12,871 nt of DNA, from contig JAAUPU010000014.1 in assembly GCA_012032975.1 (NCBI GenBank), forward strand, positions 1 through 12,871. Reading direction: 5' to 3'. The notes under the pieces were generated by a model. It was given only the letters and a program-made list of their open reading frames with translations, had not been told where the DNA came from and did not search any database. This DNA is from Caldilineaceae bacterium (GTDB taxonomy: Bacteria > Chloroflexota > Anaerolineae > Caldilineales > Caldilineaceae). The stretch's first letter is position 1, and each line of letters opens with the position of its first letter. The position numbers and the translations under genes were made by a program. This document shows positions 194 to 12,796 of the stretch, piece after piece.

Positions 194-720
194 TCACTCG
201 TCCTTGAGGGATCGTTGCAGAAGATCGCGAATTCCCAGCGCCACCGGCTTTCGCTCGTGCACGATCCGATAGACCTCTTCGGCGATCGGCATCTCGACCT
301 CGAGCTGGTTGGCCAACGCGAACACCGCCTTGGCCGTATGGGCACCTTCGACCACGCCGACCGAGCCGGCCAGCACCTGCTCGGGGTCCTCCCCTTGGCC
401 TACCCGCACCCCGAACGCTCGGTTGCGCGAATGCTGACTGAAGCAGGTGACGATCAGATCGCCAATCCCGGAGAGCCCGGCGAAGGTCCGGGCCTGACCT
501 CCCCACGCCTCTCCCAGTCGAGCCATCTCGACCGAGCCGCGGGTCACCAACGCAGCGAGGGAGTTGTCGCCCAAGCCGTGACCCACGGCGATTCCCGCCG
601 CCACCGCGATCACATTCTTGAGCGCACCGCCAAGCTCGACACCGTCACATCGGACGATGAGTAACGCGCAGCGATCGTTGCGAACGCGTGCTGAACCGCG
701 AGCGTTTCGCGCTTGCTTGC
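194..720 (-). pseudogene. gpsA: Glycerol-3-phosphate dehydrogenase [NAD(P)+], C-terminal part only, one frameshift
   Basis: GpsA makes sn-glycerol 3-phosphate from dihydroxyacetone phosphate for phospholipid synthesis in the cytoplasm. Only the C-terminal part is present. It starts near ASKRETLAVQHAF and continues through GVELGGALKNVIAVAAGI (with the conserved active-site Lys), GIGDLIVTC, SRNRAFG and EMPIAEEVYRIV, ending LQRSLKDE, a typical GpsA C-terminus. The N-terminal NAD-binding Rossmann domain is missing; in its place the frame runs into the start of an ABC exporter gene. A single-base deletion at about 642-643 (a GG run on the coding strand that should be GGG) breaks the frame between SSSDV and GVELGG; restoring one base rejoins them. 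The fragment shares the high G+C of the LarE-like gene below it, probably its operon partner. Confidence 0.82.
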
Positions 721-924
721 GCCGGCGACAATGGCGTCGTCGACGATGAGCATGCTCAGATAGGTGAAATAAGATTCCAGAAAGGCCACCACGCCGATCA
801 GGCTCAGAAAGCCAACGACATAGGGCCAATGGGGCTTGGTCTGCGCAAGAATGCGCCTGACCGTCTGCCCATTGAACTGGGTTGTGAACTCTTCTTCCTC
901 GAGTTCGTAATGCTCAGTTGACAC
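721..924 (-). pseudogene. Second half of heterodimeric ABC exporter, first 68 codons only (fused to gpsA)
   Basis: The gene starts at a GTG (924) that overlaps the 3' end of the upstream exporter half by 11 bases. AAGGAG lies seven bases before it, inside the upstream gene, so the two are translationally coupled. The acidic N-terminus (YELEEEEFTTQF) is followed by VRRILAQTKPHWPYVVGF and a first membrane segment ending in the exporter motif LIVDDAIVAG. This is the start of a type IV ABC exporter half, expected to be about 600 residues. After about residue 68 the frame continues as gpsA sequence, so five membrane segments and the whole ATPase domain are lacking. The exact fusion point is uncertain, about 700-740. 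Assembly chimera is the likeliest cause, with a real deletion or recombination as the alternative. Confidence 0.75.
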
Positions 925-2839
925 GGCTCAACTCCTTCTGCAATTCGCTTTCGATGCGAGTTTGAGCGGCATAGATGCGCCGGTAAAGTCCGTCCTGTTC
1001 CATCAATTCGTCGTGGACGCCGCTCTGCACGATGCGGCCCTTGTCCAGCACCAGGATCAGGTCGGCGCTCATGACCGTCTGGATGCGGTGCGCGATGATG
1101 AAAGTCGTGCGATTTTCCATCAACTCTTCCAGCGCACGACGGATCAACGCCTCGGTCTCGGTATCCACCGCCGAGGTGGAGTCGTCGAGGATCAGAATGC
1201 GCGGATTCTTGAGCAAGGTGCGTGCAATAGCGACCCGCTGTTTCTGTCCGCCAGAGAGCGTCGTGCCTCGCTCGCCCACCAATGTATCGTAGCCGTCGGG
1301 CAGTTTGGTCAGGATCACGTCGTGGATCGCGGCCGCGCGGGCAGCCTCTTCCACCTCAGATTGGGGCACATCGCGGCCCACGCCATAGGTGATGTTGTCG
1401 CGCACGGTGCGCGAGAAGAGGAACGGTTCCTGCTCGACGATGCCGACCTGGCTGCGCATGTAATGGCGCGGGTAGTCGGTCAACTCGCGGCCATCCAACA
1501 GGATTCGCCCGTCGGTATAGTCGTAGAAGCGAGGCAACAGATTCACCAGCGAAGTCTTGCCCGCGCCGGTGGAACCCATCACCGCGATCCGTTGACCGGG
1601 CTGGCAGTGGAAGCTGACATCGTGCAACACAGCGGTTGTCAGGTCGGGCTTGCCTTGCGCTTCTGCACCATTCGACTGCCTGCCATTCGATCCCGCGTTA
1701 CTTGGCTCGGCTTGGCTCTGTCCCGCGCTGTCTTGTGCTGCATAGTCAAAGCTCACATGCTCGAAGCTGATTTCGCCGCGCAGATGCTTGGGTGGAACAA
1801 AGCTGTCGTCGTCCAGCACCTCGCGCGTCTCGCGGATCACGGTGGTGACGCGGCCAAACGAGACAAGCCCGCGCGACATATCCACGACCAGCCGACCCAG
1901 GTTGCGGATCGGCCAGATGATCAGCAGCAACATCCCGGCATAGGCCATGTAGGTGCCGACGGTGATCGTGCCGTTGATGGCCATGAGCGCACCCACGGTG
2001 AAGCCAACCAGCATCTGGATCCCGGAAAGCACATCCGAGATAGGCCAGTAGACCGAATGCATCAGCAACAAGCGCTTGCCGCGTTGATATTTTTTCTGAT
2101 TCTCTTCGTCGAACTTGCCCTCCTCGAATTCCTGGCGGGCGAAGGCCTTGACGACACGCACGCCGGTCAGATTCTCTTGCAGCGCGTTGGAAAGCTCGGC
2201 CTCTTGCTGCTGATACTCTTCATACGCCTTGGAGACGCGCTGGAAGAAGAAGATCGACATCGCCGTGATCACCGGGATGATGATGACCGAGATCAGCGCG
2301 AGTTGCCAGTTGATCAGCAGCAGGGCGCCGAAGTTGACCAGAAAGAGAAAGAGAATCCGGCTGGTCGAGATCGCCTCGGCGGCAAAGAAGCGGCGGATCG
2401 CATCCACGTCTGAGGTGACGCGCTGGATCAGTTCGCCCGTCTGGGCCTCGTCGTGATAGGCGAAGGGCAGACGCTGGATATGGTCGAGCAGATAGTTGCG
2501 CAGTCGCAACACGATCCCCTCGGCTGTCTTGGCTGCCAGCGTTCCGCTCAAGAAGGTGAAGCCGCCCTGGATCAGCGCCAGCACGACGAATCCGACAGCT
2601 ATCGTCCACAGCGCCACCGTCCTGACATCCTGGTCCAGATAGCTGTCCACGAAATAGCGCAGCAGCAGCAAGGTGCTTGTCCTGGCAATGGTCGCCAGCC
2701 CCAGGCTCAACGCGGCGACCAGATAGGTCAGACGGTAGCCGGCCATCAGCCGCCACAGGCCGACCAGACGGCTCTCTGTCGCGGTCTCCTTCAGATCGAT
2801 TGATTCCAGTTGTGCATTGGATAATTGTGCAACGGACAT
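914..2839 (-). CDS. ABC exporter half-transporter (membrane plus ATPase domains), degenerate-site subunit of a heterodimer
   Basis: A complete 641-residue exporter half. Six membrane segments occupy roughly residues 30-320 and the ATPase domain about 355-630. Visible motifs are Walker A GSTGAGKTS (422-430), Q-loop Gln470, signature LSGGQKQR (528-535), Walker B ILILDD and H-loop His584. The residue after Walker B is Asp553 instead of catalytic Glu (DDSTSAVD), the hallmark of the degenerate-site subunit of heterodimeric exporters such as TM287, BmrC and LmrC; the partner starts 11 bases before its end. A Ser/Gly/Asn/Gln-rich insertion of about 30 residues (368-400) sits between the A-loop Tyr366 and the next strand. 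The ATG at 2839 is chosen because AAGGAA lies eight bases upstream; a TTG at 2875 would add 12 residues without support. Substrate is unknown; multidrug or lipid export is usual for the family. It is preceded by a leader ORF and two terminators. Confidence 0.93.
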   Translation of the reverse strand: MSVAQLSNAQLESIDLKETATESRLVGLWRLMAGYRLTYLVAALSLGLATIARTSTLLLLRYFVDSYLDQDVRTVALWTIAVGFVVLALIQGGFTFLSGTLAAKTAEGIVLRLRNYLLDHIQRLPFAYHDEAQTGELIQRVTSDVDAIRRFFAAEAISTSRILFLFLVNFGALLLINWQLALISVIIIPVITAMSIFFFQRVSKAYEEYQQQEAELSNALQENLTGVRVVKAFARQEFEEGKFDEENQKKYQRGKRLLLMHSVYWPISDVLSGIQMLVGFTVGALMAINGTITVGTYMAYAGMLLLIIWPIRNLGRLVVDMSRGLVSFGRVTTVIRETREVLDDDSFVPPKHLRGEISFEHVSFDYAAQDSAGQSQAEPSNAGSNGRQSNGAEAQGKPDLTTAVLHDVSFHCQPGQRIAVMGSTGAGKTSLVNLLPRFYDYTDGRILLDGRELTDYPRHYMRSQVGIVEQEPFLFSRTVRDNITYGVGRDVPQSEVEEAARAAAIHDVILTKLPDGYDTLVGERGTTLSGGQKQRVAIARTLLKNPRILILDDSTSAVDTETEALIRRALEELMENRTTFIIAHRIQTVMSADLILVLDKGRIVQSGVHDELMEQDGLYRRIYAAQTRIESELQKELSRVN

Positions 2840-2877: not shown

Positions 2878-2919
2878 AAAAAGACGTAGGCGGTTGGATT
2901 TCCTCCACTGCCTACGTCT
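2878..2919 (-). terminator. Second intrinsic terminator in the ABC exporter leader
   Basis: On the minus strand AGACGTAGGC (2919-2910) pairs perfectly with GCCTACGTCT (2891-2882), a 10-bp stem with an 18-base loop, followed directly by a T tract (2882-2878). It lies about 40 bases before the exporter ATG and behind the first terminator. The plus strand has no T tract after the hairpin, so it faces only the exporter. The loop holds GGAGG, which could mimic a ribosome binding site. Confidence 0.7.
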
Positions 2920-2956
2920 CGAATGCAGGGTCACCCCAATGGGGATTCCAAGCAAT

Positions 2957-2991
2957 AAAAAAACCGCAGGCATCGGGCCGATGCGCTGCGG
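2957..2991 (-). terminator. Intrinsic terminator (attenuator) after the leader ORF
   Basis: On the minus strand CCGCAG pairs with CTGCGG and, after one bulged C, GCATCG pairs with CGATGC around a GCC loop. This 12-bp stem is followed by seven Ts (2963-2957). It begins 23 bases after the leader ORF stop and lies between the promoter and the exporter gene, so it must be read through for exporter expression. Confidence 0.88.
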
Positions 2992-3014
2992 CTGGTTTCT
3001 ACTGTGTCGTCGTG

Positions 3015-3104
3015 TCAACTAACAGCAGGCGCACTGATCCCTAGAACCAGGTAGTCCATAACTCCAGCAATTCCCGGAGCGAACTCTCTAAACAAGTTGG
3101 ACAT
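3015..3104 (-). CDS. 29-residue leader peptide upstream of the ABC exporter
   Basis: A short ORF opens with ATG at 3104, nine bases after a near-perfect ribosome binding site GAGGAGG (3120-3114), and ends with TGA at 3015. The peptide begins MSNLFREFAPGIAG, has a hydrophobic middle (MDYLVLG) and ends ISAPAVS. It lies about 50 bases downstream of a consensus promoter and 23 bases before a strong intrinsic terminator, and the exporter gene follows. It has no Cys and no recognisable modification or cleavage site, and no RiPP enzyme genes lie nearby. Position and context point to a regulatory leader peptide like BmrB before bmrCD. A small hydrophobic functional peptide is an alternative. I do not recognise the sequence itself. 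Codons 24-28 can pair imperfectly with the 5' arm of the terminator. Confidence 0.68.
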   Translation of the reverse strand: MSNLFREFAPGIAGVMDYLVLGISAPAVS

Positions 3105-3154
3105 CAAGATGCGCCTCCTCATGAAATATCGAGACCGAAAATGTATCAGAGCCA

Positions 3155-3184
3155 ACAATAGCACAAATGGTCGGGCGTTGTCAA
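3155..3184 (-). promoter_or_regulatory. Sigma-70 type promoter of the leader-ABC exporter operon
   Basis: On the minus strand TTGACA (3184-3179, perfect -35) is followed after 18 bases by TATTGT (3160-3155, -10). Transcription would begin near 3148, leaving about 28 bases before the GAGGAGG of the leader ORF. No promoter of similar quality lies closer to the exporter gene. Confidence 0.72.
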
Positions 3185-6636: not shown

Positions 6637-6666
6637 GCTTCCGCACCACCAATAGCGAAAGAAACA

Positions 6667-6707
6667 CAAAGCGTGGTATGGAGCCTTCCATGCCACGCTT
6701 TGTTTTT
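6667..6707 (+). terminator. Intrinsic terminator after the S1-protein gene
   Basis: The arm at 6667-6682 pairs with 6687-6702 in a 16-bp stem with one U-G wobble and a GCCT loop, followed by five Ts (6703-6707). It lies 30 bases after the stop codon and separates the S1 gene from the SDR gene. Confidence 0.93.
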
Positions 6708-7533: not shown

Positions 7534-8695
7534 ATGTACTTGACCCGCGCAACCCTGGAAGCACGCGAAGCACAATTCCTGGCGCCCTATGCCATGCAGA
7601 GCAGCCAAAGCCAGGGCCGTCAATTTTCAGAGGATGAACACCCCTATCGAACCGCGTACCAGCGAGACCGCGACCGCATCATCCATACGACCGCGTTTCG
7701 CCGACTGGAGTACAAGACGCAAGTTTTTGTCTATTCTGAGGGCGACCACTATCGCAACCGGCTGACCCACAGCATTGAGGTCGCCCAGATCGGCCGAACC
7801 TGGCGCGCACATTGGGCGCCAATGAAGACCTGATTGAGGCGATCTGTCTGGCCCACGATCTGGGTCATCCGCCATTTGGCCATGTGGGAGAGGCGACGCT
7901 GCACGATCTGATGCGTGAGTATGGCGGCTATGATCACCAGCGCCAGACCTACCGCATCCTCACCCAGTTGGAACGCCGATATCCCGAACATCCCGGTCTC
8001 AATCTCACCTATGAAGTGCGCGAAGGCGTGGTCAAACACGACACGGACTACGATGTCGTCGACGCCCAGACATACGAACCCGACCTGCGCGGCACGCTTG
8101 AATGTCAGTTGAGCAATCTGGCCGACGAAATCGCCTACAACACCAGCGACTTGGATGACGGTCTGCGCAGCGGGATTTTGGCGCAAAGAGGTGAGTGAGC
8201 TTGCACTTGCCCGCAAAGTCATCGCGAGCCTGGGGGAAGGCGCCAGTTTTGACCTTGGGGAGACCATGAACCGGCATCGCTTCATCCGCAGGCTGGTGAG
8301 CATCGAGGTTTCTAACACGCTGGAGGCCACGGAGTCAGCAATCCAGGATAGCCGGGTGAATACGCTGGACGAACCTGCGCCGACTTCCTCAGAATGTGGT
8401 CGGCTATACGCCCGAGCAACATGCGCTCAATGCCGAGTTAAAACGCTATCTCTTCGCCAACTTCTATCGACACTATCGTGTGGTGCGCATGGCCGCCAAG
8501 GCGAAACGCCTCTTGACCGACCTCTTTCGCGCGTATGTAGAGGAGCCGGATCAACTGCCACCCAATACGCGGCGACAGGTGGAGGTGCAGCCAGAAGGAT
8601 TACATCGGGTAGTCTGCGATTATCTAGCAGGGATGACGGACCGCTACGCGGTCCAGGAACATCGACGACTCTACGACCCAGAAGAACGCGCTTGA
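7534..8695 (+). CDS. dgt: Deoxyguanosinetriphosphate triphosphohydrolase (dGTPase), interrupted by three frameshifts
   Basis: dGTPases hydrolyse dGTP (or other dNTPs) to nucleoside and triphosphate, with an HD-domain metal site. The sequence shows [41 protein letters not shown] (first metal His), [16 protein letters not shown] (HD pair), [19 protein letters not shown], and [22 protein letters not shown] near the C-terminus. These lie in three reading frames. One base is missing at about 7799-7801 (ACC for ACCC, restoring [15 protein letters not shown]). One is extra in 8176-8187 (removing an A restores [13 protein letters not shown]). One is extra at 8374-8375 (removing a C restores [14 protein letters not shown]). 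Corrected length is exactly 387 codons (386 residues), normal for the family. ATG at 7534 follows AAGGAG by eight bases. Sequencing indels seem likelier than a true pseudogene because the protein is otherwise well preserved. Confidence 0.85.
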
Positions 8696-11565: not shown

Positions 11566-12643
11566 CTATTTCCGCACATAGTTCATTGAGCTGACCTGGC
11601 GTACCAGACCTTTCAGTTCCATCATAGCCAGCAGGCTGCTGACCTCTGGCGACGTCATGTTCACCCGGCGCACGATGTCATCAATGTGACGCGGTTCAAG
11701 GTTCAAATGTTCCAGAACCCGCTGCTCTTTTGGATCGGGCTGGAGCGTTTCTCGCGCTTCGCGCTGTTCGTGGATGCGCGCCAGGTCCAACTGGTCCAGG
11801 ATGTCGTTGACCGAGAGAAGTGGGATCGCGCCATTCTGGATCAGTTGGTTGCAGCCAATGCTGCCCGGGTGCAGAATGCTGCCCGGAACGGCGAACACAT
11901 CGCGCCCTGGTCTGCCGCAAAACGAGCTGTAATCAGAGCACCGCTGCGCTCGCCGGCTTCGATGATCACGACGCCTTTGCTCAACCCGCTGATGTCCGGT
12001 TGCGTGCGGGGAAGTTATTTGCATCTGGGCGTGTGCCCAACGGATACTCGCTGACGACCGCACCATGACCAACCATGGACTGTGCCAGCTTTCGATTTTG
12101 CGGTGGATAGACCTGGTCCAGACCGCTGCCGAGAACGGCAATCGTACGTCCACCCCCTTCGATGGCCGCCTGATGGGCGACCGTGTCCACACCCAGGGCA
12201 AGCCCGCTGACCACAGTGACCCCGGCGCGGGCAAGCTCTTGAGCAAGACGATGGGCGACCTCACGGCCATATGCGCTGGCGCGCCGTGTGCCAACCACGG
12301 CAACCGACCAGTCGTCGGACGGTTCCAGGTGGCCACGCACATAGAGCAGTGGGGGTGGGCCATCCACTTCGCGCAGATTGGCGGGATACTCCTTGTCTGC
12401 CCAAGTGATGACATCAATTCCCGCCCGCTCGACACGCATCAATTCATCTGCGGGGTCGATCTGGGTGCGCGCACGGAGCAGGCTTTCCAGGCTACGTTTG
12501 TCAAGCCCCGCGGACTGGAGTTGCCAGAGTGGCGCGGTCCATGCATCCACGATTGAACCACAGACATCGATCAAGGCAGTCAGCCGAGCAGGGCCGATTC
12601 CAGAGACCTTGTTGAAGGCGATCCAATAGGCTTTTTCGTTCAC
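11566..12643 (-). CDS. dprA: DNA-processing protein DprA (DNA uptake, RecA loading), two frameshifts
   Basis: DprA binds incoming single-stranded DNA in natural transformation and loads RecA. Seen from the GTG at 12643: an N-terminal helix-hairpin-like part (KVSGIGPARL), then the Rossmann-type domain with WSVAVVGTRRASAYG (112-126), VVSGLALGVDTVAH (144-157; usually SGLARGID), GSGLDQVYPPQNR, SEYPLGTRPDANNFPARNR, ISGLSKGVVIIEAGERSGALITA and DVFAVPGSI, and a C-terminal winged helix (EQRVLEHLNLEPRHIDDIV) ending NYVRK. One base is missing at about 11994-11997 (in NRxISGLS) and one at 11905-11907 (CCC for CCCC, restoring AADQGRDVFAVPG). Corrected length is exactly 360 codons (359 residues). The GTG at 12643 is preferred over one at 12787 because a good promoter lies between them. 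Confidence 0.88.
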
Positions 12644-12700
12644 GCTGTTTGCCTGCGCGTCGGGTGGTTGGAGTGAGGGGTGCGGTTGAAACCAGGTGCG

Positions 12701-12730
12701 AGAATACTTCAAGTGAGCAACCGTTGTCAA
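12701..12730 (-). promoter_or_regulatory. Promoter of the dprA-manC operon
   Basis: On the minus strand TTGACA (12730-12725) is followed after 18 bases by TATTCT (12706-12701). Transcription would start near 12694, about 50 bases before the GTG chosen for dprA. It has the same -35, spacer length and first spacer bases (ACG) as the ABC operon promoter. Confidence 0.62.
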
Positions 12731-12796
12731 GGATTGAAGCAACGTCCAACGATGTGGGTCTGGGTTGAGCCGAGTGAGAAATGACACCCACAGGTA

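What the first reader, a model, noticed from the sequence alone, without database searches (positions are those of the whole stretch)
2957..3184. Leader peptide plus terminator: likely translation-sensing attenuator of a heterodimeric ABC exporter
Seen: a consensus promoter, then a 29-codon ORF with GAGGAGG, then 23 bases later a 12-bp GC-rich hairpin with seven Ts, then the exporter gene. The last codons of the ORF (TGCGC at 3033-3029 and CTG at 3025-3023) can pair with GCGCA (2986-2982) and CAG (2994-2992) in and next to the terminator's 5' arm, a possible antiterminator. Known: BmrCD of B. subtilis, a heterodimeric exporter with an Asp Walker B subunit, is switched by ribosome-mediated attenuation through the leader ORF bmrB. 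Inference: here a ribosome stalled early in the leader would free the antiterminator and turn on the exporter, giving induction by translation-blocking compounds. The peptide sequence is unlike any leader I recognise.
Basis: partly seen in the sequence, partly recalled or inferred. Interest (0 to 1): 0.8.

Follow-up and report, generated by a model that had tools for sequence, protein, structure and literature searches.

The report
Domino RNA switch before resistance genes
A short leader reading frame followed by two interlocking RNA stop signals sits in front of a drug-pump gene, and relatives of this switch sit in front of many different resistance-like genes in one large group of bacteria, where they probably turn those genes on when something, such as an antibiotic, stalls the ribosome.

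Summary
In detail: promoter, Shine-Dalgarno (SD), 29-codon leader ORF, GC-rich terminator T1, then an ABC exporter gene.

Comparison supports ribosome-mediated attenuation. I analysed 152 related leaders, nearly all from Anaerolineae (Chloroflexota). Segment 1 (SD/start) pairs with 2 (last codons), 2 with 3 (T1 5' arm); 3:4 is T1. In 89, a T2 (5:6) follows and T1's 3' arm (4) is complementary to T2's 5' arm (5). Native 1:2, 2:3 and 4:5 beat all 20,000 cross-locus permutations, also with one locus per cluster. This suggests a domino: OFF = 1:2, 3:4, 5:6; ON = 2:3, 4:5.

A covariance model hits 175 of 396 Anaerolineae genomes at E<=1e-4, 0 of 18 control genomes. Hits precede ABC exporters, DrrA-like pumps, ABC-F ribosome-protection proteins and GNAT acetyltransferases. 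24 of 115 leaders carry Arg-X-Arg, a known ketolide/macrolide arrest motif, mostly at a fixed distance from the switch; the window's leader does not.

No Rfam family matched; my literature searches found no description. The mechanism is inferred, not measured, and 58 of 92 relatives of the exporter were not counted as having it. Verdict: new variant of a known kind.

The parts
3155..3184 (-). promoter-like site TTGACA-18-TATTGT
   Evidence: promoter-like sites precede 118 of 138 related leaders
3114..3120 (-). Shine-Dalgarno GAGGAGG of the leader
   Evidence: SD>=6 plus ATG in 90 of 151 related elements vs 0.2 shuffled
3099..3120 (-). segment 1 (SD/start region) that pairs with segment 2
3015..3104 (-). 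leader ORF, 29 codons plus stop
3019..3041 (-). segment 2: last codons (..GGG ATC AGT GCG CCT GCT GTT AG..), antiterminator strand
2963..2992 (-). terminator T1 (segments 3:4), seven T at 2963-2957
   Evidence: T1 stem 7 of 8 pairs with changes on both sides in 19 relatives
2963..2975 (-). segment 4: T1 3' arm, complementary to segment 5
2881..2920 (-). terminator T2 (segments 5:6), five T at 2882-2878
   Evidence: T2 in 85 of 150 relatives vs 2.8 in shuffles
2904..2920 (-). segment 5: T2 5' arm
914..2839 (-). ABC exporter gene (ABC_membrane + ABC_tran, 641 aa)
   Evidence: 61-63% identity to L001 and L003, 69% to L031
721..924 (-). first ~68 codons of the partner subunit gene; similarity to relatives ends near 721

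Best explanation
It is a ribosome-mediated transcription attenuator, a member of a family found mainly in Anaerolineae, here in the double-terminator form. When the leader is not read, the start region (1) holds the antiterminator strand (2); when it is read to its stop, the ribosome covers 2. Either way T1 (3:4) forms and ends transcription, and T2 (5:6) catches polymerases that leak through. When a ribosome halts upstream of segment 2, segment 2 is free and pairs with 3; T1 cannot form, its freed 3' arm (4) pairs with T2's 5' arm (5), T2 fails too, and the pump gene is transcribed. Supported by comparison: ORF with SD and promoter, T1, T2, covarying 1:2, 2:3 and 4:5, and resistance-like genes behind the element. 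Inferred: translation of the leader, the switching itself, its co-transcriptional timing, and ribosome-targeting antibiotics as the signal.
For: Native partners fit better than exchanged partners, 0 of 20,000 permutations as good: 1:2 z -5.6 and 2:3 z -6.7 in 35 loci; 4:5 z -14.8 in 89 loci; with one locus per cluster 1:2 z -8.1, 2:3 z -11.2 (74 clusters), 4:5 z -10.5 to -12.2 (40-66 clusters). Features outside the search model: SD>=6+ATG 90 of 151 vs 0.2, promoter-like 118 of 138 vs 10.8, T2 85 of 150 vs 2.8. Segment 2 in frame 114 of 130. Before arm 6 is made, arm 5 is mostly paired with arm 4 in 85 of 89 (window 0.58). A modelled ribosome permits 2:3 up to codon -5 from the SAP serine and blocks it from -4 on (115 elements). 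Genes behind 129 model-found elements: 41 ABC exporters, 35 GNAT, 19 DrrA-like, 9 ABC-F, 2 MFS and others. Arg-X-Arg arrest motif in 24 of 115 leaders vs 7.5 shuffled.
Against: No expression data. At equilibrium OFF is 4.1-21.1 kcal/mol better than ON in the 10 elements computed, worst in the window (21.1), so it can only work kinetically. Averaged over 115 elements 2:3 already forms to 0.50 without a ribosome, so a ribosome-free OFF is not firm in many copies (in the window it is: 0.01). Segment 4:5 is weak in one clade with T2 (L086, L092, L104, L108, L114), and 63 of 152 elements have no T2. 58 of 92 relatives of the exporter were not counted as having the element. Codon-level selection on the leader is weak (84 synonymous vs 60.1 expected; 175 nonsynonymous; 42 non-independent pairs). 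The window's leader has no Arg-X-Arg, and its partner subunit is cut.
Confidence: 0.8

Rival explanations
1. Attenuator in which only T1 is regulated. T2 is a plain backup terminator whose likeness to T1 comes from duplication, conversion or shared terminator preferences, and the 4:5 complementarity is a by-product.
For: T1 and T2 often share sequence, and 3:6 complementarity is also above permuted (-14.5 vs -11.3). 63 of 152 elements do without T2. In the clade of L086, L092, L104, L108 and L114 4:5 is weak although T2 is there.
Against: 4:5 is stronger than 3:6 in 59 of 89 (sign test p 0.003). In L213, L171, L031 and the window T2 differs from T1 in sequence yet keeps 8-10 contiguous 4:5 pairs. 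Pair types swap sides (offset 4: 38 C-G, 32 G-C). A backup terminator that could not be disarmed would keep the gene off.
Confidence: 0.12
2. A small independent gene (a micropeptide or small RNA) with its own terminators that happens to lie before the exporter; the exporter has another promoter.
For: Own promoter and strong terminators; the space between T2 and the exporter start was not searched for promoters beyond the scan, which listed none there.
Against: Segments 1:2, 2:3 and 4:5 covary; the N-terminal peptide sequence is poorly conserved; the element recurs before unrelated genes of a common theme.
Confidence: 0.04
3. The RNA is read by a ligand or an RNA-binding protein rather than by ribosome stalling.
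For: Conserved RNA core; in many relatives 2:3 is predicted to form without a ribosome.
Against: No Rfam match in the window at E<=1 and only one chance-level miRNA match in ten relatives; SD and ORF far above chance; motif in frame; Arg-X-Arg at a fixed place.
Confidence: 0.04

Closest known systems
bmrB leader of bmrCD, Bacillus subtilis (PMC4191407: abstract, outline and one results section seen)
   Same: Leader ORF with alternative stem-loops before a heterodimeric multidrug ABC exporter; there induction by ribosome-targeting antibiotics needs leader translation.
   Different: There the terminator lies inside the 53-aa ORF; here T1 lies 22 nt after the stop, a second terminator follows, and the same element stands before many gene families.
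his operon attenuator of enteric bacteria (PMC1183508: passages seen; the A:B, C:D, E:F versus B:C, D:E scheme is recalled)
   Same: An extra hairpin between the first hairpin and the terminator, alternating in series.
   Different: There the extra hairpin is described as lowering basal read-through, not as a terminator; the signal is histidine shortage. Here both hairpins in series look like terminators and the genes are resistance-like.
ErmDL and other macrolide-sensing leaders (PMC8298421: abstract in a listing and passages seen)
   Same: Drug-stalled leader peptide; Arg-X-Arg is the telithromycin arrest motif and occurs in 24 of 115 leaders of this family.
   Different: The window's leader lacks Arg-X-Arg; the ermD paper's reporter context is a different gene, and control here is by terminators.
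uORF-controlled ABC-F genes such as vmlR (PMC9226507, PMC10201436: listings only)
   Same: Attenuation upstream of ABC-F resistance genes.
   Different: No sequence comparison was made; here one recognisable element serves ABC-F genes and others alike.
WhiB7 regulon of Actinobacteria (recalled; PMC10727445 seen in a listing)
   Same: Many resistance genes answering ribosome-targeting drugs together.
   Different: There through a transcription factor; here apparently through copies of a cis-acting RNA element.

Membership tests
Ribosome-mediated transcription attenuator | Leader ORF with its own SD downstream of a promoter | tested here: met
   Window. Family: SD>=6+ATG 90 of 151 vs 0.2; promoter-like 118 of 138 vs 10.8
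Ribosome-mediated transcription attenuator | The leader is translated | tested here: inconclusive
   SD and in-frame motif support it; codon-level selection is weak; no Ribo-seq
Ribosome-mediated transcription attenuator | Terminator and antiterminator that exclude each other and overlap the ORF end | tested here: met
   3:4 and 2:3 share segment 3; covariation
Ribosome-mediated transcription attenuator | Ribosome stalling raises read-through | not testable with these tools
   Only folding with a masked footprint
bmrB-type attenuator | Terminator inside the leader coding region | tested here: not met
   T1 begins 22 nt after the stop
bmrB-type attenuator | Controls a multidrug ABC exporter | tested here: met
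   ABC exporter by family; substrate unknown
his-type attenuator | Serial alternation of three hairpins (1:2, 3:4, 5:6 versus 2:3, 4:5) | tested here: met
   by covariation and folding
his-type attenuator | Run of His codons in the leader | tested here: not met
   The window's leader has no His
+X+ (ErmDL-like) arrest leader | Arg/Lys-X-Arg/Lys in the leader | tested here: not met
   Absent from the window's leader; Arg-X-Arg in 24 of 115 relatives vs 7.5 shuffled
Known Rfam family (4227 models) | Covariance-model match | tested here: not met
   Window none at E<=1; ten relatives one chance-level match

The most novel reading that the evidence does not exclude
Anaerolineae run an antibiotic-response regulon without a master regulator: one RNA cassette, a leader ORF plus terminators that fall like dominoes, stands before unrelated resistance genes, with the switching part kept and the peptide sensor exchanged to suit the drug (Arg-hydrophobic-Arg before pumps, other sequences before acetyltransferases and ABC-F proteins). 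The coupled double terminator gives a tight OFF and a full ON.
Probability: 0.5. Interest if true: 0.9.

Novelty: new variant of a known kind. Interest (0 to 1): 0.8.

Why it matters
Antibiotic-sensing attenuators are best known from a few model and clinical bacteria (recalled). This points to a resistance-like regulon in a poorly cultured group that is wired in cis by a shared RNA element, and to a design, two terminators disarmed in series by one stalled ribosome, that my searches did not find described. The element is a sequence tag for unknown resistance genes: whatever lies behind it is a candidate. The fixed place of Arg-X-Arg predicts which drug class some copies sense.

Tried and rejected
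A known RNA family was rejected after Rfam. Plain duplication of T1 as the source of T2 is not favoured (4:5 vs 3:6) but not excluded. One arrest peptide shared by all copies was rejected: only the last codons, which pair, and in about a fifth of leaders Arg-X-Arg, recur. The first threshold (E<=0.01, 204 of 396 genomes) was too lax, since 4 of 18 control genomes reach it; 1e-4 is used instead (175 of 396 by my count of the listed rows). Switching at thermodynamic equilibrium was rejected. A search of the protein database with the leader peptide was not possible (peptide below the minimum length). No structure prediction, no homologous-protein search and no search of viral, phage, plasmid or E. 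coli collections was made.

Rows dropped before counts: L237 (script found no U-run) and 12 of 165 collected elements as duplicates; L082 and L108 (no ORF assigned); 9 of 139 elements without a recognisable segment-2 string from the frame test; elements that could not be anchored on the SAP codons, leaving 115 of 152. I analysed 130 of the model hits that one search listed (30 fetched by the tool, 100), from the top of the list down to E about 1.4e-7, so weaker elements are not represented. The model itself was built from 19 ABC-exporter loci, so conservation of the last codons and the share of ABC exporters are partly built in.

Full report
Observation. On the minus strand the window holds a sigma-70-like promoter (3184-3155), GAGGAGG (3120-3114), a 29-codon ORF (3104-3015), a GC-rich hairpin with seven T (2992-2957) and an ABC exporter gene starting at 2839. 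The 279-nt leader folds 4.3 SD below dinucleotide shuffles, and in that fold the SD/start region pairs with the last codons (1:2) and T1 and T2 both form. No Rfam family matches the window at E<=1.

Orthologous loci. No genome is held for the window. One scan of genome contigs gave four close Chloroflexota relatives, L001-L004, whose genomes opened the class of G003 (an Anaerolineales MAG, L003) to the genome search; 279 of 298 genomes there hold some relative of the exporter's membrane half. I looked upstream of 92 of the best-scoring relatives and of the window: 35 loci, the window included, have a leader ORF before a terminator. So 58 of 92 relatives were not counted. Of these, L082 and L108 carry the same terminators but got no ORF, some had little upstream DNA, several showed only what looks like the terminator of an upstream gene, and the model later found copies farther up in three (L212, L255, L258).

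Covariation. Each segment was paired with its own partner and with every other locus's partner. For 35 loci, 1:2 has z -5.6 and 2:3 z -6.7; for 22 loci with T2, the 4:5 sum is -337 against -216 (sd 16); none of 20,000 permutations reached any of these. In an alignment of 19 elements 7 of 8 T1 pairs have changes on both sides.

A family. A 93-position model, R1, of the stretch from the last leader codons to the T1 U-run was searched in 396 genomes of the class: 204 have a match at E<=0.01 and, by my count of the listed rows, 175 at E<=1e-4. In 18 genomes of other phyla, scored with more candidates each, 4 reach 0.01 and none 1e-4. In an even draw of 400 genomes of the phylum 34 match at 1e-4; by handle numbers 345 of the 400 were new to the session, and 2 of these match, weakly. 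The element is thus found mainly in Anaerolineae. Several genomes have many copies (G347 six, G320 five).

Features outside the model confirm it. From 130 of the hits listed and the 35 first loci I kept 153 non-redundant elements and analysed 152. An SD of 6 or more bases plus ATG leads the ORF in 90 of 151 against 0.2 in dinucleotide shuffles; an SD of 4 or more in 138 against 24.6. The AGT GCG CC strand lies in the frame of the SD-chosen start in 114 of 130, against 7 and 9 in the other frames (this strand is in the model, the start is not). A promoter-like site lies upstream in 118 of 138 against 10.8 in letter shuffles. A second terminator follows in 85 of 150 against 2.8 in shuffles.

The relay. 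In 89 elements with T2, arm 4 pairs with arm 5 at -17.2 kcal/mol against -12.2 permuted (z -14.8), and 71% have eight or more contiguous pairs against 35% of exchanged pairs. With one locus per cluster (66, 57 or 40 clusters) z is -12.2, -11.6 and -10.5. Pair types swap sides: at offset 4 from the end of arm 4 there are 38 C-G and 32 G-C pairs. 4:5 is stronger than 3:6 in 59 of 89 (p 0.003), which plain duplication of T1 would not predict, although 3:6 is itself above permuted. In transcripts without arm 6, arm 5 is mostly paired with arm 4 in 85 of 89 (window 0.58). In one clade with T2 (L086, L092, L104, L108, L114) 4:5 is weak, and 63 of 152 elements have no T2. With 74 clusters 1:2 has z -8.1 and 2:3 z -11.2.

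Mechanism. With a masked ribosome footprint, pairing of segment 2 with the T1 5' arm before arm 4 exists averages 0.48-0.72 for P-site positions from -25 to -5 codons before the SAP serine and falls to 0.29 at -4 and 0.12-0.20 after that (115 elements). In the window it is 0.01 without a ribosome, 0.32-0.46 at codons 1-3, 0.28-0.42 at codons 6, 7 and 14, 0.50-0.70 at codons 16-19, at most 0.06 at the other early codons, and near zero from codon 20 on. So a ribosome at the end shuts the switch and one held back can open it. Against: OFF is 4.1-21.1 kcal/mol better than ON at equilibrium in the 10 elements computed, worst in the window, so the order of synthesis must decide, as in attenuators generally (recalled); and without any ribosome the mean over 115 elements is already 0.50, so the ribosome-free OFF is not firm in every copy.

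The sensor peptide. Anchored on the SAP codons, 115 leaders share (P)-(C/S)-R-S-A-P-(V/I/A)-(D)-(R) before the stop; these codons are in the model and pair, so this is expected. Outside the model, Arg-X-Arg occurs in 24 of 115 against 7.5 in shuffles (0 of 2000), Arg-(L/I/V/M/F)-Arg in 21 against 3.1, and in 21 of the 24 the first Arg stands 14 or 15 residues before the serine. Arg-X-Arg is the telithromycin arrest motif of ErmDL, and ribosomes stall there with ketolides in general (PMC8298421, listing and passages). It is commoner before efflux genes (19 of 63) than before GNAT, ABC-F and HAD genes (3 of 50; Fisher p 0.0015, sequences not independent). The window's leader lacks it, so its inducer is not predicted. 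Selection on the remaining codons is weak (84 synonymous single changes against 60.1 expected, 175 nonsynonymous, 42 non-independent pairs), which fits general sensing of slow translation better than one specific arrest peptide.

Genes behind the element. For the 129 elements found by the model, labels by similarity (blastp E<=1e-5) to representatives scanned with HMMs are: 41 ABC exporters, 35 GNAT acetyltransferases, 19 DrrA-like ABC-2 ATPases, 9 ABC-F, 6 HAD hydrolases, 2 MFS, 1 ABC-2 permease, 1 RIO-like kinase and 1 other ABC ATPase; 3 had no gene in the fetched DNA and 11 stay unlabelled. Two ABC-F proteins, L165 and L174, pass NCBIfam's cutoff for ribosomal-protection ABC-F (413.7 and 441.1 vs 380 bits). 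The MFS L156 is nearest TetA(P) (294 bits) and the DrrA-like proteins nearest drrA (about 250-260 bits), both below the curated cutoffs. Since the model was built from ABC-exporter loci, the other classes are the independent evidence. Resistance is predicted from families, not measured.

Comparison and novelty. BmrCD of B. subtilis is the functional precedent: a multidrug ABC exporter whose induction by ribosome-targeting antibiotics needs leader translation (PMC4191407: abstract, outline, one section), but with the terminator inside the ORF. The his attenuator has an extra hairpin that lowers basal read-through (PMC1183508, passages); it is not described there as a terminator. Searches for a description of this element (and passages of PMC2965389, PMC2864571 and PMC11109978) found none; the library lacks most subscription papers and preprints. 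I file it as a new variant of ribosome-mediated attenuation: a cis-wired family in Anaerolineae, in its fuller form with two coupled terminators.

Noticed in passing
window 613-924 (minus), junction near 720: Similarity of the second ABC subunit to those of L001 and L003 stops after about 68 codons, and the DNA goes on as the C-terminal part of gpsA (NAD_Gly3P_dh_C) in another frame: a deletion or an assembly chimera.
   Followed up: partly
window 7534-8695 (plus) and 11569-12787 (minus): An HD-type phosphohydrolase gene (probably dgt) is spread over several frames, and DprA core and winged-helix parts lie in two frames: frameshifts in the sequence or pseudogenes.
   Followed up: partly
related elements: T2 is commoner with GNAT (28 of 33) and DrrA-like genes (14 of 19) than with ABC exporters (9 of 41), and Arg-X-Arg with DrrA-like genes (11 of 19) than with GNAT (2 of 35) or ABC-F (0 of 9).
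   Followed up: partly
L246:451-1413 and L245:361-1188: RsgA-type ribosome-assembly GTPase genes lie downstream of two elements (in L245 517 nt downstream), suggesting the set may reach beyond resistance.
   Followed up: no
codon -3 from the SAP serine, 115 elements: Pro is encoded by CCT in 75 of 89 cases, followed by TGT or TCT, though these bases lie outside the pairings I tested; the reason is unknown.
   Followed up: no
window 6666-6703 (plus): A 17-pair terminator-like hairpin follows the gene with S1 domains.
   Followed up: no
L031 and L034, between T1 and T2: A further GC-rich inverted repeat seems to lie between T1 and T2 in these two loci (by eye).
   Followed up: no
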